A DNA stretch of 64,000 bases from Dictyophora rubrovolvata (Eukaryota > Basidiomycota > Agaricomycetes > Phallales > Phallaceae), in the NCBI GenBank assembly GCA_029959195.1, contig CP114124.1, forward strand, positions 2,055,102 to 2,119,101, read 5' to 3'. Under the pieces are notes generated by a model. That model saw nothing but the letters and a program-made list of their open reading frames with translations. It had not been told where the DNA came from and ran no database searches. A program made the translations under genes and the position numbers. How positions within the stretch are numbered: the stretch's first letter is position 1; the number at the start of each line of letters is the position of its first letter. Shown piece by piece: positions 7,109 to 32,455 of the stretch.

Positions 7109-7160
7109 GGACTTATTTCTTGTCTTGTACCTTATCATCGCTAAGGTCGCACTGGTAACG

Positions 7161-7491: not shown

Positions 7492-9900
7492 TGGTCGTCC
7501 GTGCCTGCTTCGAACTTCCTTCAAACAATCACTCCTATACTTTGACTTGACACGAGCCCCTGAATGCTTCTGTTCACCTCCAGGTCACTCCCAGGCCCAC
7601 CTCCAGCAAAGATACCTCAGCATTCCCCCATTTGACAACAGCACCTGCGCGGTGTAAATACGCCAGAAGCAAGGAGTTCTTGTGAAGATTTTTTGACACA
7701 AGCATTTTGACAGATAGGTGCCATGTGTTATGTCATGACCATCTATAGCTAGATTTGCCTTAACTGCGCAGTCTTGAATGAAGTCGGGTTATACCTTAAA
7801 ATATATGTTCTCGCGCTTCCCGTTTTTGCATATCTTACACTTTGCGAATGACAGAAACCCGAAGTAATGGAGTCGGAAGTACCCAAATTTAACGAATTTT
7901 GCATCACGAGAAGAACATGTCATACTAACGGTGTTGCTTATTGCCCTAACCTTGCGTCACTGAATTTTGTCTCTATTTCCGGCTACAGACTCAGAGGACA
8001 ACAATGAGCCATGCAACGAAGGGAACAGCAGCCTCACGTTAATTAACATTAACCTATGGAAGCACAAATACACGAGCATATATCACCCGTTATTGATAAT
8101 GGGAGTGTCACTTGCTCTTATGTATTAACAAAACTTCCTTGCTGATTCGCTTACAGTTACAGGTTTTGAGTATACACAGTCTTGTTCTCACTCCACACGA
8201 TATAGCGTGCCTCAGTCCAGTTCATCAATATACACAAGCATTTCTGAAATTGGAAACAGTCTTATGGTCTAATTTGTTATCTCAAAGTTTCAAATATATG
8301 TTTTAAGCGAATTTTTTTCGAATCCTGGTATTGTTGTTCTTCGAAGTTGGGAGAATGTTGAACGCGAGAAAGTATTGTTATGTTGTTATGAAAAACGCCT
8401 TGCGAAAGCCTTGAATTCCAATTGAATTTTCATTCGTACTACAACCAATTATGGGAGAATAACAATACATTGAACAAGTTAAAAAGCTGTGTCTATTCAA
8501 GTTGTCAAAGAAGCAGTGTCCTCGTTTACGCTGTATTTCAAAATTAATTTAACCCCAAGGAACTTTCCGACTTAAATTTTCTCCTGGAAAAAAATTGCAC
8601 ATGTCCTGCTGTGAAAATGGTCTAGCATCGAAGAGTATGTCGATTATCTGGAGGTGGTGCACCTGCAGCCAGTCTGGAAGCATTTAGGGAAATGTCGAAA
8701 GAATTGATGCGATCCGGCATAACGGCAATGACTGATATCTCTGTGATCGATTAGATCGATGGTTTGAGGCCTTCTGAGGCACAGTTTGGAGGAGATCCGA
8801 AGTATACACGCCTCTGCCAGTGCGAACGGAAGTCGAATTCTTCCGTTAGAATTCGAATTATTTACTACAGCTTTGCGACAGCAATGTGGGGAAACGTGTA
8901 TATTATACCTGCCAATTCAACCCTCCCTGGCCCTGCTCCATTTCCCGATATGGTATGGCATCGTTTGGCAAAAGACTTGCAAGCTGAATGGATAAATATC
9001 AACGACAAGACGGCTCGGAGGGCATCTTAACATATTCCTTTCCAAAAAAGAAACGAAAGGCGTCTTGGAACAAAGGGCCATCCACGGGAGAAAGCTCATG
9101 CCGCCCCCGACCCGTGCAGTTATTGTCTCGGTTAATCTATCTATTGAATGACTTCGATTATCGTGAATAATCTATCAATGATTTGTGAGAAATAGAACCA
9201 AACTAACCAACGACAAGACAAGGGATTGATTCATACGTGTACCAAAATGAAAGGCCTTTGGCTTTCCTACCTCGTTTACACCTCGTCGAGTCGTCACATC
9301 CATTTCGGTGTATACCTCTTGTTTATACCGCTTTCTCGAATTATGTTGCTCATGAATTGAGAAGTTAATCTCGGACCGGCGTTCAAAACTTCTCTAGCTC
9401 TGGTGGCTTGGTTTATGAAGTGTGTGATATATGGCCTCAGAAGCTAATCACGTCATGATCTGGAGGTTTCGGGAACTAGATTGATACCTTGAAAATTCTC
9501 CACTAGGTGTCTGGAAGTGCGAATACCTCCAGCTCAGCCATTTGATGGACATAATGGGTGAACATGTCGAATGTGTGTGAGAAAGTCCCATTCAAAAACA
9601 GTCTACATCAGGAGAAATAAGAAGTCTCACCAATGTAACTGCACCTCGCTTTTTACTTATTTAGGAAACTTTTTAGGTGACAGAGGTCCTCGTTGTGATA
9701 ACCTAAATGTAGTTGCCATTCATAGATCGCCATCGGCCCTTCTTTGCCAAAAAATACCGGTTTCTTTCTCGGTTGCGCTAGAAAACAAACAATGAAGTTA
9801 AACAGGAAGAAAGTGGGTTATAGCTTACCTTTCTGCTTGCTTAAAGTCCCGCTGTGAATCTACTTCGCTTCCCCATTTCACCCAAATTTCACCCCCAAGT

Positions 9901-10417
9901 ATGGTTCTATCATCAGGATTCTACCGCACTCAATTTCAAGGCAAAACGCTCCATCTCGTTCAAAGTCTGAATGAGCCTGGTAATGTTCTAATTACTGAGA
10001 ACATTACCGAGGAGCACGCCAAGTTCCGCAAAGATAAAAGTGGTTGGCTCAGCATCGACGATGGTTTGTCCCAAAAATAATATTCGAATTAACCTTAGTG
10101 AAATGTGTTTTTGCTAGGTCTTCTTGGTAGATATGGGAACCCAGCGCACCTCCGGGCGCGCGTTAATGGTACTGTATATCGTATCTGGGTTGAACAACGC
10201 GGCAGAGATCAGGTCAGTTCTATAATTCCATGTATTGAAATCAAGCCTGACTTATATCAAGTTCGGGCTAATACCGACGAATGAGTCCGGAGAATATTCT
10301 AACAAGTTCATCGGGATCTCAAAAGACGGTGAATTGAAAGTAGAAGACGAGTGGGACTCTGAGAATGGGACAGTGTGGGTCGTCTCAAGCAAATTGGGAG
10401 GATCACCTGGCTTGTAA
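9901..10417 (+). CDS. Small hypothetical protein, possibly beta-trefoil
   Basis: Three exons (9901-10063, 10118-10212, 10262-10417) give 414 bases and 137 residues. Both introns have GT..AG ends and sizes of 54 and 49 bases. The protein begins MVLSSGFYRTQFQGKTLHLV, has no signal peptide or membrane segment, and ends WVVSSKLGGSPGL. Length, the GxY start and repeated short hydrophobic strands recall the small beta-trefoil inhibitors and lectins of mushrooms (for example the I66 serine-protease inhibitors), but I see no diagnostic motif and offer this only as a guess. The gene stands 1 kb upstream of the NRPS on the same strand with its own spacing; nothing shows that the two are linked in function. 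Confidence 0.7.
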
Positions 10418-11466
10418 ATCATATGTAGTTTGCTATACAGACGTCAATTCTTGATTATAAGGATATTTTTTTCCGATAATGACTTGCCAGACCGTCGTCC
10501 CTATGAGACCTTTAACCAGCGTCCCGTGTCGCGAAAAAGTATGAAACAGAGCTTCAATATACCCGTGTAAGAAACCAGTAACTAGTCGTTTTTAAAAACC
10601 AGCTTGAATTGTCATTAACATTCAGCGAAACTGAAGTCCAGTGATACAATCGTGTTCGATAGGCCGTACATATGAAAAACATCAGTTCGACGTTCGTTGT
10701 GAAACGTCCAGGGGCTTTCTAATGAAATTGCTAATGACATACGATTGAAGGCTATCGAACGCACGTTATTACTTTGACCAAAGGAGCGTTTGACACGGAA
10801 ATACCATCGTGGCTTCAGGTTCGCTGAAATCCTCGGGCCGATTACTCAGTATGGGGTGCGCATCCTTGTGTGTCAGCACTCTCAGTGATGTCGCCATCAC
10901 TAACAAAAAGAAGAAAAATGCTGTTCCGATTAAAATAATTAAATCTATAATTTAGTTTCTCGATTGGGAGGGTGTTTACGGGGGCTCGTGAGATTTAAGT
11001 CTGTCAAAGCAAGCGGGTTTGGTGGCTTACGTAATTTAGAGGAAAGTCCATTAACAGCTTCAAAAAGCAAAATAATTGCAGTCTCCAAACTTAACAGGTC
11101 GGATTCTTTATTCCAGCGAAATCAAAGGGAATTCTGGGGGTAAATTATGTATTGTGGCCACATGGATCCGTTAGCGACAATAACTTACCAATACGCGATT
11201 ACTGGAATCAGAAATGGGGTGAAAAAAAACTGCATTCTGGGCGACTCGGTTGAAACGGCATTAACTCTGTGGCCACATCTCCGTTCTCAAAGGTAGACGA
11301 TATGTTAGACTCTTCGATTCCCAAGCTTGATCTAGACGTTCCTTTATCGTTATCATTCACATACGAGTGCAGTATTTATACCGGGTTAAACACCACTTCC
11401 GTGGATCTATAACTCGTACACTCCGAGTCGAACTTATCATTCTTACCACATACAACCATCCCCGAA
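10418..11466 (+). promoter_or_regulatory. Upstream region of the NRPS gene
   Basis: No gene was recognised. A TATA-like stretch (GTATTTATACC at about 11372-11382) lies some 90 bases before the chosen NRPS start codon, a plausible core-promoter distance in fungi. The rest shows no recognisable motif. Confidence 0.35.
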
Positions 11467-12426
11467 ATGCAGCCTGCAGATGATGACAACGATGATCACA
11501 AAAACTTTAACCCAAACTTAAACCCTAATGGCCAATTCGACCACGATTCTTCCTTGGCCAACTTGTCCAACTTTGGCATTGATTACTGGCAAAAACGCTT
11601 TGCTACAGTAGCTCCTACTATCTACCCTTTGCGTTCTTCTTCTCATCCTGTTGTCGATGCTTCAGTCACTCGACGCTTTCTTGTGCCCAGTCAAGGTGTA
11701 ATCCTTGACAATGGAATTAAACTCTCAACTATCGTTGCATTGGCTTACGGCCTTGTCTTGAGAGCTCATTCCGACGCTCCAAACGAGGTCGTCTTTGGCT
11801 ACATTCGCCATCCAGATAGGTAGTGTAACTTTACATGGACATCATACACCATGGGTTGACATTCTTTGAATAGGACTAGTGTCTCCGTGACGGGTGACTG
11901 TCCTCTGATTGGTTTCATTCAGGATATTTCTTTCAACTGGAATCAAACTACTCTCCTCTCCCTTATCAATCTACAGAATGACATTCTCCAATCAGAGAAT
12001 CAACGACTGTTCGGCGCTGAAAAGCTAACTATTCCGGCAGAGATAGCATCCTTATTCCGGACGATTGTCTTCTTTCACTCAAATTCGACCATTAAAGCCG
12101 ACCTCAAGCTGGGCGTTGATTACGACTTGAGATTCAATGTCAAATTCATCAGCTTGGACGAGATTGAGGTTGAGGCCCAATTCGTTTCCAAAAGCGTATC
12201 GGAGCTGGAAATCGAAGCATTCTTGGACCATTTCAAAGTGGCATTCGAAAACATATTCTCAAATCTCACGAGTCCCCTCTCTGAGGTCAGCCTCGTTTCA
12301 ACCCAGGAGCAGCAACGTCTCATCGTTGATATCAATCCGCCACATCCTTACACATCGTTAAGCCATGCAAACAATGTGTCACAACTTATTGAGGAGCAGG
12401 CTCGCAAGACTCCTCAGAAGATTGCT
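11467..12426 (+). other. NRPS: partial starter condensation domain
   Basis: The N-terminus aligns with only the C-terminal lobe of the downstream C domains: DYWQKRFATVAPTIYP matches FWRKHLHNASPTPF, and FLDHFKVAFENIF matches the FLDHFE.A region before each A domain. The half holding HHxxxD is absent, so it cannot condense and is probably structural, as in other NRPSs with truncated starter C domains. The single intron (11820-11873) is at the same place as the intron after GRS in the full C domains. Confidence 0.85.
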
Positions 12427-15400
12427 GTGCGTTATCATGAATGTTTCTGACTCGTGCCGTTATTAAGATATCATCATACAGCTCCAACACGATCAGGATC
12501 AGTTTGTTACCTATAAACAGCTGGATTCGCTTGCCAACAACGTCGGTCACGCTCTGATCTCCAATGGCGCGAAGCAAGGTGATCTAGTTGGAATATACAT
12601 GGATAAATCTTGCGAAATGTTTATAAGTATCCTCGGTATACACAAGGCCGGGTGTAGTTACGTTCCGTTGGATCCAGCACATCCTTCTGAGCGTATTCAA
12701 ACTATCCTTAGGATCGCGAACATCAGTGTCGTACTTATTAGCAAGGCGTTCAAACCACATCTCGAATCCCAGAACTATGGGATCATGCTTCTGCCAATTG
12801 ACACTCATGATCTTTCTCCTGCTACAAAACCAGATGTGCACGTTACCCGAGATGACATCTCTCATGTACTGTTCACTAGTGGTTCAACAGGGGTTCCTAA
12901 AGGTATGAATGGCTGTTCTGGTTTCTGGCTCATGTCGTTCACTACTTACGCGTGATTTTGTTTTGTCAAGGCGTTATCCTCACACATGGATCCATCATTG
13001 AGAGTGTTCTCGGATCTCGGGACGTCTTTGGTCCTTTGAATGGCCGAGTGCTGCAATTCGCGAACTACACTTTCGATGTCAGCGTTTGGGTAAGTAAAAC
13101 GTTATGAAACGAGTAAATTGTTCTCAATAAGATTTTCAGGATTGGTGCGGTACTTTCTCTGCTGGAGGTACCTTGTGCGTTGTCCCAAGACAAAAACTGA
13201 TGGATAACCTCGGGGGTGTCGTCAGTAGCTTGGATGTGACCTTCTTGGAGACAACACCAACGGGTGGGGAAGATCGTGCATTTGATCATGGCGATAACAT
13301 ATTGATTTTCTTTTGAAGTTATGGCCCTTATATCGCCTGAGGAAGTTCCAACACTTCAGATGTTAGCACCGGGTGGTGAGCCTTTGACACCAGAGGTTCG
13401 CAATAAGTGGGCGAACGTGGCAAACGTCGTCAATGTGTGGGTGATCAAGCGCTTTATATTTTGAATATTAAACTCAAAGCCGAAATCTCAGATATGGTCC
13501 AACCGAAGCAAGCACAAACGTGACGGCACTTAAATGGGTCACTTTATCTACCGAACTTCCGAATATAGGGAGACCATTTGGTTTGAATGTCATCTATGTT
13601 TTGGATGAACGACTGCGACCTGTACCACTCGGCTGTGTCGGTGAACTATTCATTGGCGGACCTCAAGTAGCTCGTGGGTACTTGGGTGCTCCCGAGCAAA
13701 CGGCAAAGGCATTCGTCAGCGACCCCTTCCGTCCAGGCTCTATCATGTATGCTTCTGGGGATCTCGTTCGCATGAGTCCTGTCGATTACTCAATCACCTA
13801 TCTCGGTCGTCGTGATACTCAAATTAAAATCCGTGGCCTGAGAATAGAAATTGGAGAAATTGAAGCCGTCCTTAAAGAAGCAAGCACGGACATTGCTAAT
13901 GCGGTAGTTATCAAAGTGGATACTGGGAATGAAAGCCTGGTTGCATTCTTAGAATACTCCCTTCATATGGAAACCGATGACGTATCTATTGTTCATGAAG
14001 ATCAACAGGTCGTCGCATCGCTGAAACAGGCTGCCCGACAGAGACTCGCGCCGTATATGGTTCCAACTGTATACGTTCCTCTCACTCGTTTTCCGCTTGC
14101 AAGTTCCGGAAAACTGGATCGAAAGGCGTTGACTGCGTTCTTTTATGCACATCAGGACGAAATTAGGGACCTTCGACTCGACTTCGAAGAACTTCCATCT
14201 GTAGAAGCACCACGCGACGAGCTTCAAGCAACTCTAAGAACCCTATGGGCTTCAATATTGAATATCGGAGAGGAGCTGTTAAGCATTGATGTCGATTTCT
14301 TCGCCGTTGGAGGAGACTCGATTTCTGCAATACGGCTCGCAAGTGCTGCCCGCGACGCAGGCATCCACCTTCAAACAACAGACATAATTCAAAATCCCAC
14401 AATCGTCGAAATGGCAAGGATTGCTCGAACAGCCGTCATGGACTACAAATTCGACGACGACGAGACACCGTCTGTGACTCTGGATCAAATGAATCCCGAG
14501 GACCTCACGTTGCTGGATATTGACAAAACTCGACTCGACGTCTTCCAAAAGCAGTTGCTGTCTAAACATGGCTTATTGCCCACGTATGTTTACATTTCAT
14601 TCCATAACGCTGTTGACTAGCCTAATTGAAAGCCATTTTGTAGCGATGTGCTGGACATTTACCCATGCACGGCGTTACAAACCAGCTTCCTTGTAGCTGG
14701 TTTATTCGTTGATGACTCTTATGTCATAAGGCAGATTTATGACCTTCCCCCGGGATTAAGCAGTATTCGCATTAAAGAGGCTCTCGACGACTTTATCAAC
14801 CACCCCAATGGAACAATTTTCAGGACTATTTTTATTCTTGATGACGCTACCGGCCGCTACCTTCAAGTTGTGACCCGTCCTTCGTGGAAATCAATTGAAT
14901 GGAACACAATTGCAGTCACTACTGAGGCCGCGCTCGAGGTAGCCATACGCGAGTATCAATTCGGCCGCGGATGTCAGAAATTCGAACAGGGAGAACTGAT
15001 GACGAGAGCCTGCATTTTTGAACTGAGTGGTGTTCCGAGTGCACTTGTTTGGAGTTTACATCACGCGGTGGCGGACCATTGGAGTATAAACAATGCCGAA
15101 TGTGATATTGCAGACATGTTTTTCAAGCGGTCTCTACCTCATCGACGATCTTTCAAACCAATGATCAAATACCTCGAGAGCCTTGATCGTACACCCGGTC
15201 TGCATTTCTGGCAAAACCATCTTCTGGATGCAAATCCAACACCATTCCCTCAAAGTGTTCCTGATGGTTCCCGTGCTATCGCAAACACGGTGGCTTCTCG
15301 TGAGCTACATAAAGACCACACGTCGTTCACTCGCCACTTCGGTGTTACGGCCGCATCCTTGGCCACTGCTGCGTGGTCTGTTGTCATAGCTGCACACACA

Positions 15401-18400
15401 AGTAGTCCGGACGTTGTGTTTGGGCAAGTTGTTGCTGGACGAAGTATGTGCTCTTCCTGTGCAAAAGAGAGGAAGATAATTTACGCTTCGATTAGATGCG
15501 CCGATCAAGGATATTGACTTCATGGCGGGAAATACCATCAACACCGTGGCTCATCGCGTTATCTTGAAGCCAGAGGCTTCTATCCTCGATACCTTACTTG
15601 CAATCCAGCGGGATCAGACTGAAATAAGCAAACATGAACATATTGACCTCGCGGAACTCCGATCACAAGGCACACCTGCTGCTAGCCTTTTCAAAACTTT
15701 ACTCAATTTCACAAATCTTCCCGGAGATCAAAGAGACCCTGTGAACGCACACGGCCCCGCACCTGATTCTTGCCTGTGGATACGAAGGCAGGGAAGTTAT
15801 GATGGGTAAGACTACTTCAGATAAACGCAAACATAACAAATAACATCCGTACTTTTTTAAGCCAAGACATTCCACTCGTAAGTACAGGAAATAAACGCAT
15901 CATAGAGGCACTATAATTTGCTTTAGACGCTTACGGTAATACCGGTTACAACAAGTGACTTTTACATTGAGGCAAACTATAACGACAAGGTGCTTTCGAG
16001 GGCCGAGGTCTCTGTGATCATAGACCATTTCGAGTCAGCTCTGTGTTTTATGATAGATCACCCAAAGAGGCCTGTGGCTGATGTTGGGCTTATCAATGAT
16101 CAAGAGATGCAACTACTTGTCCCTCCACAAAAGCCATCCGTTCTGGAACCTAATGGAGGTGCAACCGACGATGGGTTTTCCTCGGTTCAGAGCGTGTCTC
16201 GACTCGTAGAACTTCAGGCTGAAAGGACGCCTGAACGGATCGCAGTAAGTTGATTTGGTCGATATTATGCTATCATATTGACATGTTGCAGCTTCAATTT
16301 GGTCAAGACGTGTTCATGACATATCGGCAAATGGATGCCTTATCGAACAATCTGGCTTATATGCTTATCAAAAGTGGGGTTGAGCGAGGAAACCTCGTCG
16401 CACTTTACATGGACAAGTCGATTGAGATGTTCTTGTCAATCCTTGCGGTGCACAAAGCTGGCGGTGCATACGTTCCCTTGGATCCAGAACACCCTGCTGA
16501 CCGTATCAATACCATCCTCCGCCTATCAAGGGCCGTCACTGTGCTTACAACCAAAGAACTTCAGGAACAATTAACTTCTATGCTTGTCGAAGCCAAAGCC
16601 AGTTTAACAGTAGTTGATTTCACGGAGCTCTCCGCTGATGAGAAACCTAATGTACATGTCACCCGCGACGATATATCTCACGTCCTTTTCACAAGTGGTT
16701 CAACCGGTATTCCCAAAGGTAAAAGTGTTGCGAAGCTTCATATTACTTGCCAGCTGATACGGTTTGTTTAAAGGTGTAATCCTCACACATGGATCCATCC
16801 TTGAAAGTACCCTCGGATCACGTAGTGTCGTCGACCGTCTTGACGGGCGGATACTACAATTTTCTAACTATACTTTTGACCTTTCCGTTTGGGTATGCCT
16901 TGTTTGATATGCTAATGGAATTACTAATGAACACCTCTTGCTCAGGATTGGGCGTGTACATTAAGTGGAGGGGGTACTTTGTGCATTGTACCAAAGCAAA
17001 AGTTGATTGATGACCTGGGCGGCGTGGCAAAGGGTTTGGACGTTACTTTTTTGCAGACTACCCCAACTGGTACGAAATATCGCATAATGAGAGTATTACC
17101 GCACAACACTGACTTATGGCCAATGCAGTTGCAATGTTAATATCGCCTGAAGAAGTTCCGTCTCTTCGACTTCTGCTATTAGGTGGTGAAGTGTTAACTC
17201 CCGAGGTTCGCAACGCGTGGACTGACTCGGTCACACTTATGAACGGGTATGTGACCAGATACTATTTCCTAGACCGAAACAAAGATTTATCAATGATAGA
17301 TATGGTCCCACCGAGGCTAGTACATACGTGGCCATGATGACACGGGTTACCTCGTCTACTGGTCTTTCCAACATCGGGAGATCCTTTGGTCTCAATGTAA
17401 CATATATTCTGGATGAACGTCTTCGACCTGCACCTCTCGGTTGTATTGGCGAGCTGTTTATTGGTGGTCCTCAGGTAGCTCGTGGATATCTGGGTGCTCC
17501 CGAACAAACGGCCAAAGTTTTCGTCAATGATCCCTTCCGTGCTGGTTCCATAATGTATGCTTCTGGGGATCTTGTTCGCATGAGTCCTGTCGATCATACC
17601 ATCACATATCTCGGCCGTCGCGATACGCAAATTAAAATGCGTGGACTAAGAATAGAAATCGGAGAGATCGAGGCCGTACTGAAAGAAGCCAGTACAGTTA
17701 TCGCCAATGCCGTGGTCATAAAGGTAGATATTGGGAAGGAGAGTTTGGTTGCTTTTGTGGAAGTCTCGTCCCATACGGAAACCGACGCAGTAGTTATCGT
17801 GCACGAGGACCACCACTTGGATGTCCCTCTAATCGCATCATTAAGACATGCCGCTCGGCAGAGACTCCCGCCATACATGGTTCCGAGTATATATGTGCCC
17901 CTCAACCGCTTCCCCCTCTCAAGCTCAGGAAAACTAGATCGTAAGGCACTTGGCGCATTCTTCTATGCCCATCAAGAGGAAATTAGAGACCTTCCACTCG
18001 ATTCGGAACAACTATCATCGTTGGAGGTACCGCATGACGAACTTCAGGCAACATTGAGATCTCTATGGGCTTCTACCTTGAATCTCAAAGAGGACTTATT
18101 GGGCATTGATGATGACTTTTTCGTAGTTGGAGGAGACTCGATTTCTGCTATACGACTAGCGAGTGCCGCTCGTGACGCAGGGCTTTCTCTTCCTGTAACG
18201 GACATCATCCGTAACCCAACCATTCGCAAAATAGCACAGATTGTTAGGTCTGCTGTTCCCAGCGACGATTATGACGATGACGAGACACCCACTATCACTC
18301 TTGATAGGATGGCTCCTAAAGACCTCACACTTCTCAGCCTCAATGAGGATGAACTTAATTCCTTACGCAATGACCTTCTTCCAAAATATGGTCTCTCTGC

Positions 18401-21400
18401 AAGGTAAATCATTCCTTTTATCAATGACTGTTGCTCAAGACATTATTTCCTAGTGATGTCCTTGACATATATCCTTCAACTGCTCCGCAGACCAGTTTCT
18501 TGTTAGCAGGTATGATCATTCATGACGCATATATTGTCACGATATCTTGGGACCTCCCTCCAAATACGGGTGTTATCCAACTCCAGGAGTCGTTCGACAA
18601 CTTCGTCAATCAAGGCAATGGGATGATGCTTCGTACAGTGTTTTTATTCCATCCTGTTTCAAACAAATGGCTCCAAGTAGTCGTCAAGCCTGAAACAAAA
18701 CGAATGGAATGGAACGTCATCACTGTCGCGAATGAGACTGACCTTTCTTTGCGCGTATCTGAATACGAACATAACCGCGGCAGCCAGCAATTTGAGGATG
18801 GGGAGCTTCTTACTCGCGCCTGCATCTTTCAGCTGAATGGCCATGCTCGAGTCCTTGTTTGGACTATACACCATGCTCTAGTAGACCATTGGACACTGGA
18901 ACATATGGTGTCCGACATAGACAGTGTATATGCGAATTATCCTCTTCCAACCCGCCGCTCTTTCAAGCCAATGATTAAATACCTACAACACATTGATCAT
19001 GCCGGCGGCGTGGAGTTCTGGCGGAAACATCTCCATGATGCCTCGCCAACACTTTTCCTTCAAAACCGTTCCAATGCTCGTCGCGTGACTGCTAGTACGA
19101 TCATATACCGGCATATTCAAACGATAGATACCGGCCTCCTCATCAGTCGCTTCGGTATCATGCCATCAACGTTGATAACTTGCGCTTGGTCGATAGTATT
19201 GTCGGTCCATAGCAACACCAGTGATGTTGTGTTTGGACAGGTTCTTTCGGGTCGAAGTATGTAACTCTAACTCGTTGCTACATTCAACTCAACGTCACTT
19301 CAGGTGCTCCTATCAAAAATATCGGGATTATGACTGGGATTATGATCAATACTGTTGCCCGTCGAGTTCTGTTAAACCCGACAGTCACAGTGCTTGAGAC
19401 ATTGCAACAAATACAGTCAGAACAGATTGAGATCAGCAAGCACGAGAGCATTTCCTTAGCGGAGCTACAGGCCGAGGGCGTTCCTGTCTCTTCCTTATTT
19501 AACACGATCCTTAACTTTAGGAACAAGGGTTTCAATAAGGTGATCGAACAAGATGGACGGCTAGCGAAGGACAGTTTGTTTGCCAAACCACGGACAGATG
19601 GTCGTGATAGGTATGCTATCCTAGCTTTCTGATACAACTAGGATCTAATCACAACGTCTAACCGAGGCTCGACTACCCTTTCGTAAGTGATAACATTGTC
19701 ACTCGTGTCGTCCCTCTCATTTTTTCCTTCAAGGCCTTGGACATCGACCTCGTTTCGACGGACGGCATTTCCATACGCGCACAGTATGCTTCTGAGAGCA
19801 TGTTCGAAGCCGAAGTCAACACATTCTTGGATCATTTTGAAACTGCACTACACTTCATCATAAATCATCCACAAAGCTTGATTGCCGATGTCGAACTCAT
19901 CAATGATCAAGAGAGACTGTTGCTCGTGCCTCCAGAGAAGATAATGGAGCTGGAGCTTGACATTCACGACCAGAGGTCATACTATTCCAACGATCGTTCA
20001 ATTCAGACTGTCGGTGGACTAATTGAGCTTCAAGCTGAAAGAACGCCCCAGCGCATTGCCGTGAGTGGATATATATAACTCGGTTTTTGGGTTTCAGTCA
20101 TACAATTTGACTTCCAGCTTCAATTCGGTCAAGACATATTCATGACATATCAACAAATGAATTCTCTTGCGAACAATTTGGCTCAGAAGCTTATCAGTAA
20201 TAATATTGAACGAGGAAACCTTGTCGCGCTTTACATGGACAAGTCGATCGAGATGTTCTTGTCAATTCTCGCTGTACACAAGGCTGGTAGTGGTTATGTT
20301 CCGTTGGATCCGGAACATCCCCCTGAACGTATCAATACCATTCTCCGCCTATCGAAAGCGGTAGTTATTCTCACAACCCAAGAGCTTCAACAACAACTCT
20401 CATCTGTGCTTGTCGAAGCTGAAGTCAGCTCGATGGTAATCGACTTCACGGGGCTCTCTGTTGATGCGAAACCTGATGTATATGTCACCCGTGATGACAT
20501 ATCTCACGTCCTATTCACGAGTGGCTCAACTGGCATTCCCAAAGGTGAAGCTGTTGCATTGTTACATGTTCTTGTTAGGAGCTGACGCAATTCCTTTGAA
20601 GGTGTTGTGCTCACACATGGATCTATTGTTGATAGTGCGCTCGGGTCGTTGAGCGTCACTGGCCGCCTTGACGGTCGAGTTCTGCAATTCTCTAATTACA
20701 CCTTCGATCTTTCCGTCTGGGTATGTTTCGTTCAATTGGTTAGTGGAATTACTTACCGTCTCGTGCTCAGGATTGGGCTTGTACATTGAGTGGCGGAGGC
20801 ACTTTGTGCATTGTACCAAAGCAGAGATTGATAGATGATCTTGGTGGCGTAGCAAAAAGCTTAGATATTACCTTCTTGCAAACTACCCCAACTGGTGAGT
20901 AGAGCTAATTAACATCGATCCCTCAATACTGATAGCTTGTAGTGGCAGCATTGGTGTCACCTGAAGAAGTTCCATCTCTTCAAATATTGTTACTCGGAGG
21001 AGAAGTGCTAACTCATGAGATTCGCAACACGTGGGCTGACACGGTGACCCTTATGAACGGGTAACTACTTGATTATGTGTTTCTTTGAGACAATACTCAT
21101 AGCGAATATGACAGCTATGGTCCTACAGAAGCTAGTACATATGTTGCTGCAATGAAGCGAGTCACATCGTCTACAGGCCTTTCTAATATCGGAAGACCTT
21201 TTGGTCTTAACGTCCTCTATGCCTTAGATGAACGTCTCCGACCTGTGCCGCTTGGTTGTATAGGTGAACTGTTTATTGGTGGTCCTCAAGTAGCACGTGG
21301 CTACTTGGGGGCTCCTGAACAGACCGCAAAGGCTTTTATCAGTGATCCCTTCCGTCCTGGTTCCGTCATGTATGCTTCTGGAGATCTCGTTCGGATGAGT

Positions 21401-24400
21401 CCTGTTGATCACTCTATCACATATCTTGGCCGTCGTGATACCCAAGTCAAGATTCGCGGATTGAGAATTGAAATTGGGGAAATCGAAACGGTACTCAAGG
21501 ATGCTAGCCCGGATGTCGCCAACGCGGCAGTCATCAAAGCCGACACTGGGAGCGAAAGTCTAGTCGCCTTTTTGGAATACCCTTCTGTTCCTGGAACAGA
21601 CGATGTCGTTATCGTGCGCGACGACCAGCAATTCATCGGCACACTCATAACATCATTACGACGTGCTGTCCTGCAGAAACTACCACCGTATATGGTACCG
21701 AGTATCTATGTTCCTCTCAATCATTTCCCGCTTTCGAGTTCTGGAAAACTGGATCGAAAGGCACTTAGCTCATTCTACTACACGAATCACGAAGAAATCA
21801 GGGACCTTCAGCTTGATTCAGAACAGCTATCGTCGTTGGAGCTACCTCATAACGAGCTTCAAGCGACGCTGAGGTCCCTATGGGCAACAATATTAAATCT
21901 CAAGGAAAGTTTATTGGGTATCGACGACGACTTCTTCATAGTCGGAGGAGATTCGATCTCTGCTATACGGCTCGCAAGTGCTGCACGTGATGCAGGTCTT
22001 TCTCTACCTGTAACGGACATCATCCGTACCCCTACTATTCGGAAAATGGCAGAGGTTGTTCAGTCAGCTACCTCAAGTGATGATTACGACGATGATGAGA
22101 CACCAGCTGTCACCCTTGACAAAATGTCTCCCGAAGACCTCACGCTTCTCAACATCGATTTTGTCGCACTTAATTCTCTTCGAAACGACTTGCTTCCGAA
22201 GTACAACCTTTCGGCCAGGTGAGCTCATTTTTTTCCTGTTGGTGCTGTATGCTCTTCTCATACAACATTTCTCAGTGACGTTCTCGATGTATACCCTTCC
22301 ACACCTCTCCAGACCAGTTTCTTATTGACGGGCATGATTGTTCACGACGCGTATATCGTCACGATGTCATGGGACCTTCCTCCTACAACAGACGCTGTCA
22401 GGCTGAAAGAAGCACTGAACGACTTCGTCAATCAGCCCAACGGAATGATGCTCCGGACTGTGTTTTTGTTCCAGCCTGCATTCAACAGCTGGCTTCAGGC
22501 CTTAGTCAGACCGGGGAAAAAAGGAATGGAATGTCAAATTATCACTGTCGCGGACGAAAAAGACCTTGAATTGCGCATTTCTGAATATGAGCACGGTCGA
22601 GGTAGTCAGCGGTTCAATGATGGAGAGTTTCTTACTCGTGCGTGCATCTTTGAACTGGATGGATATGCACGAGTACTTGTGTGGACTTTGCACCACGCCT
22701 TAATGGATCGTTGGTCAATGGAGAACATGGTGACCGACATAGAACGTATTTACGCGGCGCATCCTCTTCCACTTCGTCGCTCTTTCAAGCCAATGATCAA
22801 GTATCTTCAACACATCGACCGTATCAGTGGTATAGAATTTTGGAGAAAGCATTTGCATAATGCCTCTCCAACGCCTTTCCTTCAAGGTCGTTCCAATGCT
22901 CGTCGTGTTACTGCCAATACAATCATACTCCGTGACCTCCATGGAGTTGACGCCAGCTCGCTTACCCGTCGTTTTGGTATTATGCCATCAACGCTGATAA
23001 CTTGTGCTTGGGCAATGGTATTGTCAGCACACAGCAACTCTACAGATATTGTGTTCGGGCAAGTTCTCTCCGGAAGAAGTTCGTAAATTCTTATTCAATC
23101 GCGCGCTCTGTTTTACAAAGTAACTTCATAGATGCTCCTATCAGAAATATCGGATCAATGACCGGAATTATGATCAATACTATAGCTAGGCGTGTTATGT
23201 TTGATCCCAAACTCACGGTGCTTGAGATGCTGCAGCAATTACAGTCGGAACAGTTCGAGATTGGCAAGCACGACAGTATTTCTTTAGCTGAGCTACAAGC
23301 CGAAGGCATCCCCGTTACCAGCATGTTCAACACCATTCTTAACCTTTGGAATAGAGGATTTGATATTTCTCTGGAAAATGACCTGCCCGTAGAGGACCGT
23401 CTCTTTGGCAAAACTAGAAAAGATGGTCGAGGACGGTGCGTTGTCTCAGCTATTTAAAGAACTTGTGTTTGATTTTGATGTAAATTCAGACTCGACTATC
23501 CTTTAGTAAGTAAACGCGAAGTTGTAGTGATGTTTTTTTTTTGACAATTTCTAAGGTCGTTGATGTGGAATTGGGCTCTACCGATTTTATCTCTATCAGC
23601 TCGGTACACGCCTCTGAAGCTATTTCTGACGCGGAAACCCACGTCATCCTCGATCATTTCGAGTCTGCTATACGCTTCATGATAGATAACCCAGAGAAAT
23701 TGATCATTGATGTCAAACTCATCAATGATCAGGAAATGCAAATACTCGTACCCTCAGACACGGTCCCCGAGCCGAACGCGTATAGCCAGGCTTTATCGTA
23801 TCCATACGACTCACATCTTCTCTCAGTTCAAAATGTATCCCAATTAATAGAGCTTCAAGTTGAAAAGACGCCACAACGGATAGCCGTCAGTGAATTCGCT
23901 TCAGTTTCTTTCGCTGTGTATTGACTAGATCGCAGCTTCAATTCAGTCAAGACGTGTTTATGACATATAGACAAATGGATTCACTCGCAAACAATATAGC
24001 TCGAAAACTTATTAGGAGCGGTGTCGAGCGAGGAAACCTGGTTGCTATTTACATGGACAAGTCCATTGAGATGTTCCTGTCTATTGTCGCAATACACAAG
24101 GCTGGCGGTGGTTACGTCCCGTTAGATCCAGAATATCCGGCCGACCGTATCAATACTATTATCGGCTTATCAAAAACGCCAATTATTCTTACATCGAAGG
24201 ACCTCCAACAGCAACTAGCCTCTATACTTGGCGAAGCTGGAACCGGCCTAGTGGTGGTTGACTTCAGAGAGCTCTCTCCCGAAATTAAACCTAATGTTGA
24301 AGTTACGCGCGACGACATATGTCATGTTCTTTTCACTAGTGGTTCAACCGGTATTCCCAAAGGTATTGACCTTGTGTGCTGTTGTATTCCGTGGCTAACC

Positions 24401-27400
24401 TTGCCTTTGCCAAGGTGTTGTCCTTACACACGGATCCATCATTGAAAGTGCCCTCGGATCTAGAGAACATCTTGGTTCTTTTGACGGCCGAGTATTGCAG
24501 TGTGTGAACTACACGTTCGACGTCAGTGTCTGGGTAAGCATGATTCAATGGTTTCCCTCTGAATCTCGCATAAACAAAACTTTAGGACTGGAGTGTTACA
24601 TTGACCGGCGGAGGCACGATTTGCATCGTTCCAAAACAAAAGTTGATGGACGATTTTGCTGGCGTAGCAAATAGTTTCGACATAACTCTACTGGAAGTAA
24701 CACCGACTGGTAAGTCGCGTCATGCCCTAAGTCTTATTTCTTCTTATCAATACCTGCAGTTGCCGCGCTCTTATCTCCTGAGGAAGTGCCAACCCTTGCT
24801 ACAATGATATTGGGTGGTGAAATGCTGAGTCCTGAAGTTCGTAACAAGTGGGGTGACGCGGTAACCCTTATGAACGCGTGCGTAGTCCTCTTTGTCAATA
24901 GGAAAAGTGAATTATTTACTTATACGTTGCAGATACGGCGCTACCGAGGCCAGTACGAATGTGACTATAATGAGACAAGTCACACCTTCTATCGAAGTCT
25001 CTAACATCGGTAGACCGTTTGGTCTGAACTTCATTTATGTCCTGGACGAAAGTTTAAGACCTGTACCTCTCGGCTGCATTGGTGAACTCTTTATTGGCGG
25101 ACCTCAAGTAGCTCGTGGGTACCTAAGTGCCCCGGAACAAACTGCCAAAGTTTTCGTCAATGATCCCTTCCGTCCTGGTTCGATTATGTACGCTTCTGGA
25201 GATCTTGTCCGCATGAGCCCGGTCGACTACTCAATTACCTACCTTGGCCGGCGTGATACTCAAATCAAGATTCGTGGACTTCGGGTGGAAATTGGCGAAA
25301 TTGAAGCTGTTCTCAAAGCATCCAGCACGGATATCTCGAATGCCGCTGTCATCAAAGTGGATGCAGGAAGTGAGAGTCTTGTTGCCTTTTTGGAGTATTC
25401 TCCTAGTCCGGACTCTACGGATAGCGTTGCTATTGTACATGAAAACGAACAGTTCATTGGTACGCTCGTGGCATCGCTGAGACGTGCTGCCCAGCAAAGA
25501 CTTGCGCCATATATGGTTCCTACCGTATACGTCCCGCTTAATCGGTTCCCGCTTTCAAGTTCTGGCAAGCTAGATCGCAAAACTCTTACCGCTTTCTTCT
25601 ATGCCCACCTGGAAGAAATCAGAGACCTCCGGCTTGATTCCGAACTCTTCGCGACGCTATCGTCTCTCGAAATGCCACAAGACGAGCTGCAGGCTACGCT
25701 AAGGACGCTATGGGCCTCGATATTGAATCTTAGGGAAAACCTCCTGAGCATTGACGACGAATTCTTCTTGGTTGGGGGAGACTCTATTTCTGCGATTCGA
25801 CTTGCAGGTGCTGCTCGCGATGCGGGACTTTCTTTACCTGTGACCGACATCATTCGTAACCCGACGATTCGTAGAATGGCCCAGATTGTGCAATCAGTCA
25901 TTCCCAATAACGATTATGACGACGACGAGACGCCGACCGTCACTCTTGACGAGATGTCTCCTCAAGATCTTACCCTTTTAAACGTCAACCAAGACGAATT
26001 CGAATATTTGCGGAATGACCTGCTTGCTAGATCTGGAATTTTTGCTAGGTGAAAGTGCTCCTCTTATGGTATAAATTTACGAGGCTGATAGGAATGTCTT
26101 TTTTGCTAGTGATGTCCTTGACGTATATCCGGCGTCAGCTACACAAGCCAGCCACCTGTTGGCCGGTATGACGGTTCGCGACGCGTATATCGTTCCACTA
26201 TCATGGGATCTTCCTCCAAAGACAGACGTCGCAAAACTTCAAGAGGCAATCGACAGCATTATCAATCAACCTAACGGGATGATGCTCCGGACGGTGTTCC
26301 TGTTCCACCCTGTGTCGAACAAGTGGCTGCAGGTGTTAATTCGACCTGAAGGAAAGCGGATGGAGTGGCAGATTGTAACGGTTACTAGTGAAGCGGAACT
26401 TGATTTACGCGTGTCCGAGTACGAGCTCGGTCGAGGCAGCGAGAGGTTCGATGATGGAGAACTTCTTAGTCGGGTTTGCATCTTCCAGCTGGGTGGATAT
26501 GCCCGTGTTCTGGTCTGGACGGTACATCACGCTTTGATGGATCGATGGTCGATGGAGAATATTACGTCCGACATTGAGCGCGTCTTTGCGAATTATCCAG
26601 TTCCATCGCGACGGTCTTTCAAACCTATGGTCAAATATCTGCAACGGGACGACCGTACTGTCGATATTGACTTTTGGAAAAAACATTTGCACAACGCGTC
26701 GCCAACGCCTTTCTTGCAAGGTCGTGAGAGCTCGACGGATACAATCATGTTCCGCGATATTCATATCGACCACATTTCCCTTGTTCGTCGATTTGGTATT
26801 ATGCCTTCAACGTTGATTACCTGTGCCTGGGCGGTTGTACTGTCGGTGCATTGCAAGTCCACTGATGTCGTATTTGGACACGTTCTTTCTGGTCGAAGTA
26901 TGTGAAAGTCTTCTATTTATTCTCAACTTGTTAACTGAGATGTTCTCCCTCGCTTTTTTTTTTCAGACGCTCCTATTAAGGATATTGGGACAATGAGCGG
27001 AATCATGATCAACACGGTCGCTCGTCGAGTATCGCTTAATCCGAAATCCTCCGTCCTGGAGACGTTACAACAAATACAGTCAGACCAACTCGAAATCAGC
27101 AAACATGAGAATCTTTCTTTGGCGGAGTTGGAGGATGAAGGCGTCCCAGTTTCTACGTTGTTCCATAGTATCCTCAACTTCCGCAACAAAGGATTCAATC
27201 AGGTCATAGAACACGATGGAAGTTTGGTCGAGGACCGTCTATTTGCTAATCCTCGCAAAGCATCTCATGGCAGGTATGCTAACTCTTTCAAAAAATAAAA
27301 TCGGTTACGTTTCGTTGTTGTCTAATTGTTAATTTCTAGAATCGAGTATCCTTTGTGCTTAGATGTAGACCTCCGTCCGACGGGTGTTATCTCGATCAGC

Positions 27401-27640
27401 TCATTCCACGCTTCCGAAATAATTTCTGAAGCAGAGATGCAAACCTCTCTGGACCACTTTGAGTCTGCTCTACAATTCATGATTGGTTATCCGGAGAAGT
27501 CGACTTTTGAGCTCATCAGCGATTGGACAGAGCGTCAGCTCGGCATCAGTTCTGCGGCCATTGACCACGATAAACCAGGCTCAAAGGGAGCGGGATGGGA
27601 TGGGAAGGGAAGGGAATTTGTGGCTCAAAAGGAAGTTTAG
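11467..27640 (+). CDS. Four-module non-ribosomal peptide synthetase
   Basis: NRPSs load amino acids by adenylation (A), hold them on phosphopantetheine carriers (T) and join them by condensation (C), in the cytosol. The domain order is partial C, then four A-T-C modules. About 37 exons code roughly 4,700 residues; the 36 introns are short with GT..AG ends, and the exon junctions I checked keep the frame, so the gene looks intact. A-domain cores are present four times: FTSGSTG.PKG, YASGDLVRM, GRRDTQ.K.RGLR.EIGEIE and SSGKLDRK.L with the catalytic lysine. All T domains carry GGDSISAIRL with the serine that takes the cofactor. All four full C domains keep HHxxxD. There is no epimerase, methyltransferase, thioesterase or reductase. 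Ending in C recalls the cyclising terminal C domains of ascomycete NRPSs. The start was chosen because it opens the first coding frame after a TATA-like site. No tailoring gene is visible nearby. The product is unknown. Confidence 0.96.
12482..16244 (+). other. NRPS module 1 (A1-T1-C1)
   Basis: A1 spans about 12482-14150, T1 about 14200-14430 (GGDSIS near 14308) and C1 14644-16244. Aligned by eye to the GrsA numbering, the pocket residues at 235, 236, 239, 278, 299, 301, 322, 330, 331 and 517 are D V W E A G V T N K. I do not recognise this code. C1 has HHAVADHWS. Nine introns interrupt the module, including a pair that isolates a 16-base exon at 15862-15877. Confidence 0.85.
16292..20060 (+). 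other. NRPS module 2 (A2-T2-C2)
   Basis: A2 about 16292-17990, T2 about 18030-18260, C2 about 18455-20060 with HHALVDHWT. The pocket residues read D L W Q L G G T Y K, the same as module 3, so both should take the same substrate. Nine introns lie at the same positions as in module 1, and a 16-base exon lies at 19667-19682. Confidence 0.85.
20118..23885 (+). other. NRPS module 3 (A3-T3-C3)
   Basis: A3 about 20118-21810, T3 about 21850-22070, C3 about 22275-23885 with HHALMDRWS. The pocket residues D L W Q L G G T Y K equal those of module 2. The 16-base exon is at 23490-23505. Protein similarity to modules 2 and 4 is high throughout, pointing to fairly recent tandem duplication. Confidence 0.85.
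23936..27640 (+). other. NRPS module 4 and terminal C domain
   Basis: A4 about 23936-25590, T4 about 25680-25905, C4 about 26108-27640 with HHALMDRWS. The pocket code D V W E I G A T N K is close to module 1. One intron found in the other three modules is exactly missing after 27355, so the 16-base exon is fused to its neighbour. The protein ends about 40 residues after the FLDHFE-like motif (here SLDHFESALQFMI), with a short unrelated tail and no carrier or release domain; C4 itself is the likely release catalyst. Confidence 0.85.
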
Positions 27641-28368
27641 ACTTGGACTTTTTATTTTTCTCTAGGTTGATCTCGAACGTTAAACGTTAAACAATCATAT
27701 ATATTCCTTGCGTTTTTTTTGGTGTATAGCTACATGTATAGTTACGTGATATTGTTTTGAATTTGTTATAATTTATTATTTATTATGAATGTCCTTTTTT
27801 CTTTTGAAACGAAAACCGTTTGATTCTCAGTTTGAAGAATTTCGACTTCGCGGCCAACGTCGGTGCCAGAGGGTGATCCCACGTTGCAAGTGCGTTGGTG
27901 TTGAAAGGTGATTGGACGATCTAATCGCCGAATTTATGTATATATTAAACACGCCACCCATTTTCATAATTCTCATAATTCTCTCCGTACTTGACCTAAT
28001 GGCCGTCACCGAAAGACCCACTTACTCTGTACCCGTCCCAATCTGTCCCTTGGATATCTTGATGCGTCCACCTGGAGTATATGGTATATCTCTAGAAATA
28101 TTGAAACGGACCGAAGACACTCCTTTGCTTGAATGGGGTGCGTGTTCGCTTCCAGTTTTTTTGTGTCGGGAGAAGACAAATGTGATTTTTGTTCCACAGC
28201 GAAGGCGTATCGTTACATGTTTGAATAACAGCGGTTTCTATAAAAGAAGAGGGACAAACATTTATTCGAGCTTTCCTAATGTTACTACAGGGACGTTTGC
28301 TTGGTTCACCGGATAATGGTAAAAATTGTAAGAAGAACCTCCACTAGGAAGGAGGGTTTTTGTCATGT
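27641..28368. other. Intergenic region downstream of the NRPS
   Basis: The first 150 bases are AT-rich (TTATTATTTATTAT near 27770) and fit a 3' end. A single open frame of 134 codons (27912-28316, plus) with a hydrophobic N-terminal segment has no family resemblance that I know and no intron support, so I do not call it a gene. The LTR of the next element begins at 28369. Confidence 0.4.
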
Positions 28369-30964
28369 TGTCACAACCCACGTGCTTCGTAGTCCAAATC
28401 CGGGCTTCCCGTACTTTGTGCTCCGAACCCCGATCAATTCCCCAACCCCGAGATTCGCACGATGTCCGAACTTTATCTAGTCTCTATGCGGGGACCAATC
28501 GTCCGGTACTTATAAATAAGGTACACAACTCAATAGATAATTGTCTTGTACTCCGACTAGTGCATTCCATTTGTTTCGCCCGGAACTCCTTTTATCTGTA
28601 TCCCCTTATATTCTTTGATCTCAAATTCGTATATAAACTCATAGTTATTCCATATGTAAACTCTAGTCTGAATATTAGTTTATTTCTCCTCATACTCTTT
28701 CTGCTTCGTACTCCAATTACACTGTCGGGTTTGACTCGGACTTCATTCCAGTTGACTTGAACTTCATATCTTTGTCATTATAAATGACACTGACCTACTA
28801 TAGTCTGATTAGACATCAGTCTTTCTTGTACTTATATACTTTGTTGTAATCTGAAATCAAGGGATACAATAAGCTGGGCAAGTGGGTGCAACATCTAGTT
28901 GAAGCTGAGTCCCTCACCTCTGTACCTCATATTTGTTTCGGGACATCATCCATGCTCTGAACCTATCGGACTTAATTGGGATTGATCCAGAACACCACGT
29001 GTAACAACCCCCCTGACAAATACATGTTCAAGAGGAGATTCATTGATGGACTAGATGATAAAATTACTAGTGAAATCATTAAGCGAGGGTTCATGGCCGA
29101 GAACTCGTCAATGTAACATTTCATTACAGATAGTATAGCCCAGCTCTTATGAGTTCACAAGGTAACAGTGGAAAACTGTATATTCACAGGTAAACAGTAA
29201 GAAAGGCTACTGGCACCTTTACTGGCTAGTGGTATTTACATGATGTACGGTGCCTACATACTATTACATAATCATGCTACATAGTGCACATGCTAAGTCA
29301 TGCATCATAGTATAATGGACTTATGCCTAAGTCCATAGGTATGCATCCACTATAGAAGCAGAACTGTTACAGTCAATGAGACGACTGTACACCGCAGCCA
29401 ACAATGTTGAACAAGTGTTCAGTTACAATAAGGCATTGTCATATCATCGAACCACAATGACAGCAACGAGCTTGCACTCGAGCTTAGCAAGACAGGCATA
29501 CGAGAATAACCATCATTGTTATGTGCTGGAACGTGCGTACAAAGTCTGGCGAGGTTAATGTGAGAGATAAATAGTAGGCTTCAACTTGCTCTTGAGTTGC
29601 ACCCTCACTGTGCATGTCCGTTAACTTCAAGCCATGTGGTCGTGACATCTGACATGCGAGTGCATGGTTCAGATGACACATTATGATGTCAGGAGACATC
29701 ATTCTGAGCGAGACGGGGAATGTGGGTTACAACCACGTCGTACGATGGGTGTGAGAGTTTTGGTGACATCATGCACGTTGCCTCAAACATTGAGATAGAG
29801 ATTTTAAGATTTGAGATGAAATGTCGGCAGCATCTGTGATGCTGCCCGTGGTGAAACGAGAGATTAAGAAGAAGAGAAGGTGTTTCAAAGAAGCTTGGTG
29901 TAACAAGTAACAAGGCGAAACTTCTATTGATATCAGAACGGAAAAGTAGATACATTATTAAATCAATCCTTTTATAGAAATGAAACATGATGACAAATAT
30001 GAAAAAGGATGATGCAGACAAGTTTGGAAAACAGCAACTTCAGGGAGTTACCCAATAGGGACTGAGCAGGGTTTCAGGAAGTTAAGCGAGGTTACGTACA
30101 CACTAAGTGGGCATAACAATCATGCACATCTCAAAACTAGTGCAACTACTAATCATCCTGTAAAATCTGGACAGATATCAGGGAATCGACCCTCGACGAC
30201 GACCACTAGTAATAGACTGCTAGTAACTAGTATAGCCATGAGGGCAACTACCTCATCTGGACCAAGAGTGTCTGGCTCAGGAACACAGACGCGTAATAGC
30301 AGCACTGTAGTAAAGTGCTATGAGTGTGGACAGACAAGACACATGAGACCCAACTGTCCAAAGAAGACACAAATACATGCTAATGCTGGCCATATAGAAG
30401 AAGTGGAGGATGAGGCCCTCGATGCTGTAATAGATGAAGGGGAAGAAGCCAACATAGAAGACGGCACAGATGTCCCAGCAGATGAAGAGGCAGTGGGGCA
30501 GGATAATGACAAGCCAGTCAATTATGGTGGGGGGGACCACTATGAGTGGGATGATGACAACCCCAGGGCATATATGATGCTGATAACCGATGACCATGGT
30601 TATGACAATAGGAAACTCCTTGCCATCAGGAAGAACGTGCCTAAGAGTGGGATAGTGACTGCACAGGATGAACCCCTGTATAATCACATAATGAGGCCCA
30701 GAATTAGGACTCCCAAACATAAAAAGGGGCAATGAAACCTATGGAAGGTTTATGGTCTGTGAATGGCCAGTTGGCACATTGTCTCATAGACAGTGGTTGC
30801 CAGACTCGCAACAGGAGCAAAGACATTCAAACTGATAAACCAGTAGCACTGCAGCTGGCAGTAAAGGGTAGTAAATTCATAATACAGTACAGGATGTATA
30901 CCCACATAGAATTTGGGGAGATTAGTGTACTAGAGTACTTTGACATAGTCAACATTGATGTTAG
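28369..30964 (+). mobile_element. Broken Ty3-like LTR element (family E)
   Basis: An LTR of 638 bases (28369-29006, TGTCAC..TAACA) is followed by a decayed internal region. Recognisable parts are a gag-like stretch just after the LTR, a zinc-knuckle coding region near 30310-30360 and an aspartic-protease-like region near 30780-30960. The body is broken in many places, its pol is missing, and its 3' side is cut off by a family A LTR at 30965. About 1 kb in the middle (about 29110-30120) shows no clear coding and may be another insertion. The same LTR family occurs at 40545-41202 and, inverted and partial, at 33504-33689. This is an old fossil. Confidence 0.75.
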
Positions 30965-32387: not shown

Positions 32388-32455
32388 GAGGATCGCAGTG
32401 ATTTGAGAGTTTGATCAAAGATCGGACGAAGGAAATGGGGAGTGAATGGAAATAA

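What the first reader, a model, noticed from the sequence alone, without database searches (positions are those of the whole stretch)
11467..27640. Four-module NRPS with an A-B-B-A' specificity pattern and a terminal C domain
Seen: by eye-alignment to GrsA numbering the ten pocket residues are DVWEAGVTNK, DLWQLGGTYK, DLWQLGGTYK and DVWEIGATNK for modules 1-4. Modules 2 and 3 are identical and 1 and 4 close. The last domain is a C with HHALMDRWS and there is no thioesterase. Known: terminal C domains of fungal NRPSs can close peptide rings; non-siderophore multimodular NRPSs are uncommon in Agaricomycetes. Inference: the product is a tetrapeptide with two equal central residues, probably cyclic. 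The T-C-T-C tail usual for ferrichrome-type synthetases is absent, so it is probably not one.
Basis: partly seen in the sequence, partly recalled or inferred. Interest (0 to 1): 0.82.

Follow-up and report, generated by a model that had tools for sequence, protein, structure and literature searches.

The report
Mushroom four-module peptide synthetase
A fungus, probably a mushroom relative, carries one large intact gene for an enzyme that builds a small peptide without ribosomes; the enzyme looks like one three-part unit copied four times in a row, and its product and release step still have to be shown at the bench.

Summary
A spliced gene runs from ATG 11467 to stop 27640: 37 exons, 36 GT-AG introns of 47-69 nt, 4735 residues, one open frame. 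It encodes C0(truncated)-(A-T-C)x4; no thioesterase was found.

New here: the modules look like tandem copies of one ~3.8-kb A-T-C unit with up to nine introns at the same positions and phases (9, 9, 9, 8; 28 of 35 placed without using homology). A domains are 69-79% identical; dN/dS is 0.04-0.13 in the 13 of 18 pairs where estimable. Identical codes in modules 2 and 3 fit this history.

The inference is only partly supported. A ferrichrome synthetase is unlikely: no T-C-T-C tail, all four carriers read VGGDSI. Equal residues 2 and 3 is reasonable. Equal residues 1 and 4 is weak (11 of 17 pocket residues; other pairs 9). Cyclisation by C4 is possible but unshown: C4 is a sibling of C2 and C3, shares C3's motif, and is no closer to TqaA's cyclising domain than C1 or C3. 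No tailoring genes were recognised.

The parts
11467..27640 (+). complete NRPS gene, 37 exons, 4735 aa, C0-(A-T-C)x4
   Evidence: splice model; frame check; which introns were edited
11467..12366 (+). C0: truncated N-terminal C domain, C-terminal half only, no HHxxxD
   Evidence: Pfam Condensation 316-455 of 456, 27.9 bits below cut-off; coordinates
12409..14218 (+). A1, code DVWEAGVTNK
14207..14581 (+). T1, VGGDSI, Ser at 14318
   Evidence: Pfam PP-binding
14582..16184 (+). C1, HHAVADHWS at 15059; most divergent of the four full C domains
15862..15877 (+). 16-nt microexon in C1 (found by the unaided model)
16227..18038 (+). A2, code DLWQLGGTYK
18027..18401 (+). T2, VGGDSI, Ser at 18138
18402..20000 (+). 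C2, HHALVDHWT at 18869
19667..19682 (+). 16-nt microexon in C2 (set by homology to C1)
20043..21853 (+). A3, code DLWQLGGTYK, all 17 pocket positions equal to A2
21842..22216 (+). T3, VGGDSI, Ser at 21953
22217..23825 (+). C3, HHALMDRWS at 22691
23490..23505 (+). 16-nt microexon in C3 (set by homology to C1)
23868..25683 (+). A4, code DVWEIGATNK; A5 motif NAYGATEAS
25672..26046 (+). T4, VGGDSI, Ser at 25783
26047..27637 (+). C4, terminal C domain, HHALMDRWS at 26525; stretch homologous to the microexon is fused to the next exon (one intron absent)
   Evidence: Pfam Condensation 114 bits

Best explanation
An intact fungal multimodular NRPS, made by tandem duplication of one intron-rich A-T-C module, that works as a linear four-residue assembly line. 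A1 loads residue 1 on T1; C1, C2 and C3 join residues 2, 3 and 4; A2 and A3 activate the same amino acid. C4, a duplicated elongation-type C domain at the end of the line, then moves the T4-bound chain onto a nucleophile, most simply its own N terminus, giving a cyclic tetrapeptide X-Y-Y-X'. Shown here: gene structure (as a model), domain order, intact motifs, codes, homology of the modules and their introns, low dN/dS. Inferred: linear use of each module once, identity of the residues, and release by C4 with ring closure (I put ring closure itself at about 0.45).
For: One open 4735-aa spliced frame. A, T and C motifs in all four modules, catalytic His and carrier Ser present. Nine introns at identical alignment columns and phases in modules 1-3 and eight of them in module 4; at four of the nine columns all four modules were placed without homology, at the others one or two modules were edited. 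Unit spacing 3803-3835 nt in 14 repeat families. dN/dS 0.04-0.13 in the 13 of 18 module pairs where dS could be estimated. A2 and A3 identical at 17 of 17 pocket positions. No TE or extra carrier copy found downstream. PMC2823734 passages name a terminal C domain as one of the two main fungal release routes; PMC4041764 passages describe a fungal NRPS whose terminal C-PCP is proposed to close cyclic tetrapeptides.
Against: C4 is not distinguishable as a cyclising domain: same C3 motif as internal C3, same 95-aa T1-C1 spacing as the other three modules, TqaA score lower than for C1 and C3. None of six code stems searched was found in a relevant paper and the code is unreliable in fungal siderophore synthetases. 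dS is not estimable in 5 of 18 pairs and above 1.2 in the rest, so dN/dS is rough. No expression data. No fungal reference genomes could be searched, so orthologues are unknown.
Confidence: 0.6

Rival explanations
1. The enzyme works iteratively or non-linearly: C4 couples two chains, or a chain to a free amine or another carrier, giving an octapeptide, linear amide or depsipeptide instead of a cyclic tetrapeptide. (The rivals overlap, so their odds are not exclusive.)
For: Fungal NRPSs with terminal C domains are often iterative or non-linear (PMC10192304 passages; PMC10212144 passages). C4 resembles elongation domains C2/C3 more than TqaA.
Against: Each module has its own A, T and C with intact motifs, so no module needs loading from another. 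No extra T or T-C unit such as SidC carries.
Confidence: 0.25
2. A siderophore synthetase: A1/A4 activate a hydroxyornithine derivative and the product binds iron.
For: A4 matches two AHO codes at 6 of 10 positions. Acidic residue at position 278 in A1 and A4, as in 4 of 8 AHO rows of PMC2644324 Table 2.
Against: The acidic 278 is just as common in Gly rows (4 of 8), A4 also matches a Gly-assigned code at 6 of 10 and GrsA at 5 of 10, and the best A1 match is 4 of 10. No T-C-T-C tail; carriers VGGDSI. SidN scores 99 bits below GrsA. No ornithine monooxygenase or acyltransferase recognised among 55 distinct non-NRPS segments of the window scanned against Pfam, but such genes can lie elsewhere.
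Confidence: 0.1
3. C4 is a passenger of the last tandem duplication and does not release the chain; a separate thioesterase or spontaneous attack does, giving a linear or cyclic peptide.
For: The duplicated unit is A-T-C, so a C is left at the end whatever its use. The C4 branch is somewhat longer than those of C2 and C3 (0.35 against 0.21 and 0.25, in an unresolved tree).
Against: C4 keeps HHxxxDxxS and has dN/dS 0.085 against C3, though dS 3.2 is near saturation and C4 against C1 or C2 could not be estimated.
Confidence: 0.2

Closest known systems
Cyclosporin synthetase SimA and the CYCLO subfamily (PMC2823734: section 8 and passages; PMC3688495: passages)
   Same: Multimodular, modules arisen by tandem duplication; CYCLO A domains are grouped with bacterial NRPSs apart from SID/EAS, and here too GrsA and TycA score above SidN. 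One basidiomycete member (Phanerochaete chrysosporium Phchr1_2706) was reported.
   Different: Four modules; no methyltransferase-sized insert in the 509-519 aa A domains (that SimA carries such domains is recalled); the P. chrysosporium gene is described with a TE. Clade membership could not be tested.
HcpA, fungisporin synthetase of Penicillium chrysogenum (PMC4041764, passages)
   Same: Fungal tetramodular NRPS, terminal C proposed to help close a cyclic tetrapeptide.
   Different: HcpA has E domains, a non-linear order and a C-PCP tail; this enzyme has a regular (A-T-C)x4 order, and its 95-aa T-to-C spacing leaves no room for an E domain.
Ferrichrome-type synthetases (PMC2644324: abstract, passages, section 22 part 1; PMC10212144: section 10 and passages)
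   Same: Fungal, multimodular, A-T-C modules, terminal C domain.
   Different: No T-C-T-C tail, carriers VGGDSI instead of ACP-like XGXDSL, codes at most 6 of 10 alike.
TqaA terminal condensation-like (CT) domain (PDB 5dij, 5dlk, 5egf, 5ejd)
   Same: C domain at the C terminus, no TE.
   Different: C4 scores 47 bits to TqaA and 94 to the surfactin synthetase C domain; it is a sibling of its own internal C domains.
Type VI basidiomycete siderophore synthetases, CsNPS2 class (seen only as cited in PMC8358039 passages; the original paper is not held)
   Same: Basidiomycete NRPS.
   Different: The Ganoderma relative carries HHALYDG and code DTSVGISKRK. A single A domain in the class is recalled; here four.

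Membership tests
Multimodular NRPS | A, T and C domains with core motifs in each module | tested here: met
   Pfam; TIGR01733 AA-adenyl-dom matched in 4 of 4 A domains (370 bits against cut-off 317 for A2); motifs. AMP-binding_C is above its Pfam cut-off in 2 of 4 modules and slightly below in 2
Ferrichrome-type synthetase (SID) | T-C-T-C tail | tested here: not met
   Protein ends in C4; tblastn of all domains finds no further copy in the window (best E 0.06)
Ferrichrome-type synthetase (SID) | CT-A type C domains beside carriers with an ACP-like XGXDSL motif (PMC10212144) | tested here: not met
   4 of 4 carriers read VGGDSI
Ferrichrome-type synthetase (SID) | A-domain code of AHO type | tested here: inconclusive
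   A4 6 of 10 with two AHO codes and with one Gly code; A1 best 4 of 10; A2/A3 best 5 of 10 (23 table rows including GrsA)
Fungal CT (cyclising terminal C) domain | Position at the C terminus without TE | tested here: met
Fungal CT (cyclising terminal C) domain | Grouping with CT domains apart from elongation C domains | tested here: inconclusive
   C4 is 61-65% identical to C2/C3; TqaA 47.3 bits for C4, 54.8 for C3, 54.9 for C1.
Fungal CT (cyclising terminal C) domain | Long T1-C1 spacing (86 aa for CT against about 60 for LCL, PMC10212144) | tested here: inconclusive
   95 aa by my motif borders, but the same in all four modules
Fungal CT (cyclising terminal C) domain | Ring-closing activity | not testable with these tools
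   needs product or enzyme assay
[quoted passage not shown]
   no fungal reference A domains held beyond PDB chains; PDB scores fit the bacterial-like group
Dual E/C domain | Extra HH[I/L]xxxxGD motif (recalled) | tested here: not met
   0 matches in the protein

The most novel reading that the evidence does not exclude
A basidiomycete lineage of NRPS outside the described fungal subfamilies, in which the chain-releasing terminal C domain arose anew, by tandem duplication of an ordinary elongation C domain, and not from the known CT clade; its tetrapeptide would be a new mushroom product class next to RiPPs.
Probability: 0.3. Interest if true: 0.65.

Novelty: new member of a known kind. Interest (0 to 1): 0.45.

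Why it matters
Basidiomycetes have few multimodular NRPSs outside siderophore synthesis, so an intact four-module line is a direct entry to an unknown product. Its four modules share intron positions, a readable record of how an NRPS grows by copying a whole module in a eukaryote. The identity of the terminal C4 and the internal C3 motif makes the question of what turns an elongation C domain into a release domain testable in one protein.

Tried and rejected
No whole genome is held for the window, so paralogues, the rest of a cluster and the species could not be examined. Bacterial origin: the 20 best plasmid rows listed are 37-40% identical to A2 (2179 of 2179 records under 60%) and the seven bacterial loci (of 83 pattern matches) 30-36%, so recent transfer from bacteria is not supported; an old one is not excluded. 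A literature search for six code stems gave two irrelevant papers. A subdomain swap or gene conversion at the pocket was tested: informative sites favour A1A4|A2A3 by 7 of 8 in the pocket segment (columns 190-300, bounds set after seeing the sites) against 18 of 49 elsewhere (Fisher 0.010), but without the code columns it is 4 of 5 (0.08) and a free-placement scan is reached by 79 of 1000 shuffles. I do not claim it. The tree with 12 bacterial A domains groups A1 with A4 (98/97); its root is for drawing only. The C tree, with three bacterial rows, is unresolved within the window domains. A thioesterase or fifth carrier hidden downstream was sought and not found. Tailoring or siderophore genes: 55 distinct non-NRPS segments scanned against Pfam (57 entries; window:30013-30732 was given twice, the small 9.9-kb gene once as a fragment and once longer). 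They cover 24 of the 25 ORFs of 75 aa or more in 1-11400 directly and the 25th through the small gene, and 10 of 10 in 27641-33800; beyond 33.8 kb only larger or better-scoring ORFs were taken. Matches above cut-off were transposon domains, DUF6533 and NDC10_II; the rest were below cut-off (DUF3301, CD47, Phasin_2, NDK, Ogr_Delta, Retrotrans_gag, and some of the protease and integrase models). Short exons could have been missed. Rfam found nothing at gathering threshold in the window.
Full report
What was checked. A spliced-frame dynamic programme anchored only at ATG 11467 ended at the stop 27638-27640. Five of its 34 introns were then replaced by seven after comparing modules (one place, four), leaving 36 introns of 47-69 nt, all GT-AG, and 37 exons. 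Twenty-nine introns stand as the programme found them. The frame holds 4735 residues; the other five frames of the same spliced sequence hold 153-357 stops.

Domain order. C0-A1-T1-C1-A2-T2-C2-A3-T3-C3-A4-T4-C4. Pfam finds PP-binding in the four module exons tested and Condensation in C4 (114 bits); AMP-binding_C is above its cut-off in two of four modules and slightly below in two. The N-terminal exons of C1, C2 and C3 match Condensation at 66, 62 and 71 bits. TIGR01733 is matched by all four A domains. C0 is the C-terminal half of a C domain, 25-29% identical to C1-C4 and below Pfam's cut-off; truncated, presumably inactive C domains are drawn in other fungal NRPSs (PMC10212144 passage). tblastn of every domain against the window finds no believable copy outside the gene (best E 0.06). 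The 10 ORFs of 75 aa or more between 27641 and 33800 gave no TE or other biosynthetic domain above cut-off.

Codes. Anchored on FD235, 278 before TPT, G301 before GE, Y323 in YGxTE and K517 in SGKLDRK (recalled anchors, in line with the residue numbers printed in PMC2644324; no alignment to GrsA itself was displayed), the codes are DVWEAGVTNK, DLWQLGGTYK, DLWQLGGTYK and DVWEIGATNK. Over 17 pocket positions A2 and A3 agree in 17, A1 and A4 in 11, all other pairs in 9. So B-B is firm and A-A' is weak. Against 23 rows of a published table (22 ferrichrome-synthetase domains and GrsA) the best matches are 4, 5, 5 and 6 of 10; A4's 6 are shared by two AHO codes and one Gly code, and A4 matches GrsA in 5, so these values are near background. 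The acidic residue at 278 in A1 and A4 occurs in 4 of 8 AHO rows but also in 4 of 8 Gly rows, so it says little. PMC2644324 states in its abstract and text that the ten-residue code failed for the fungal domains it examined.

Origin of the modules. Direct repeats recur every 3803-3835 nt through the gene. Introns lie at nine identical columns and phases in modules 1-3 and eight in module 4. Of the 35 module introns 28 come from the unaided model; at four columns all four modules are unaided, at four more one or two modules were edited, and the ninth, after the 16-nt microexon, was found unaided only in module 1. So the shared pattern does not rest on the edits, but the microexons of modules 2 and 3 do. 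In C4 the homologous stretch is fused to the next exon (sequence). A domains are 69-79% identical, T 60-80%, C2-C4 61-65%, C1 44-47% to the other full C domains. dN/dS is 0.04-0.13 where dS could be estimated (13 of 18 pairs). The simplest reading is repeated tandem duplication of a whole A-T-C unit that already had its introns, followed by long purifying selection. The identical codes of modules 2 and 3 follow naturally, since these are also the closest pair (79%). Whether modules 1 and 4 share pocket residues by common function or descent is unsettled: A1 pairs with A4 in the tree (98/97) and the signal is densest in the pocket (Fisher 0.010, bounds set after seeing the sites), yet it weakens to 0.08 without the code columns and 79 of 1000 shuffles reach the scan value.

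Relatives. By PDB profile search (60 of 157 matches listed) the A domains score highest with bacterial NRPSs (LgrA about 230 bits a domain, tyrocidine synthase 1 311, GrsA 305), SidN 206, the fungal hybrid PsoA 178. The C profile scores surfactin synthetase 146 and TqaA 69. Plasmid and bacterial genome relatives are at most about 40% identical in the rows listed. In the survey of PMC2823734 (Table 1) nine Basidiomycota rows hold one CYCLO gene, three SID genes and no EAS gene. No fungal genome could be searched here, so I cannot say whether orthologues exist. That this enzyme is undescribed rests only on the ten paper searches, in which I saw listings, and on passages or single sections of the papers named here.

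The terminal C domain. C4 carries HHALMDRWS, identical to internal C3. Searched singly, C4 gives surfactin 93.7 and TqaA 47.3 bits; C3 95.8 and 54.8; C1 104.2 and 54.9 (C2 was not run alone). The spacing from carrier motif to C1 motif is 95 aa in all four modules by my borders, nearer to the long fungal and dual types (82-105) than to LCL (59-70) in PMC10212144, so the long linker is not special to C4. C4 is therefore terminal by place, not by any sequence mark I could test. It keeps its active site, so release by C4 is my preferred mechanism, with ring closure at about 0.45.

Surroundings. Upstream there is a small gene at about 9.9-10.4 kb without database match and a DUF6533 fragment at 2698-2976 minus. 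From about 30.9 kb to the end lie dispersed repeats and retroelements, among them a gypsy-type element with 97% flanking repeats at 51751-52050 and 59009-59308 (domains). No tailoring, transport or siderophore gene was recognised among 55 distinct segments scanned.

Verdict. New member of a known kind, with an unusually clear duplication record.

Noticed in passing
51751-59308: Gypsy-type retroelement with 97% identical flanking repeats (51751-52050, 59009-59308) and protease, RT, RNase H and integrase domains between them.
   Followed up: partly
41976-42206 (-): NDC10_II domain (40 bits), as in Crypton-type elements (that link is recalled).
   Followed up: no
about 9901-10418 (+): Small intron-containing gene, about 138 aa, no Pfam family and no significant PDB match; hand-spliced, one junction residue guessed.
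   Followed up: partly
2698-2976 (-): DUF6533 fragment (51 bits).
   Followed up: no
15862-15877, 19667-19682, 23490-23505: A 16-nt microexon in three modules (unaided in the first, set by homology in the other two), fused to the next exon in the fourth.
   Followed up: yes
30.9-64 kb: Dense nest of dispersed direct and inverted repeats, many over 90% alike.
   Followed up: partly
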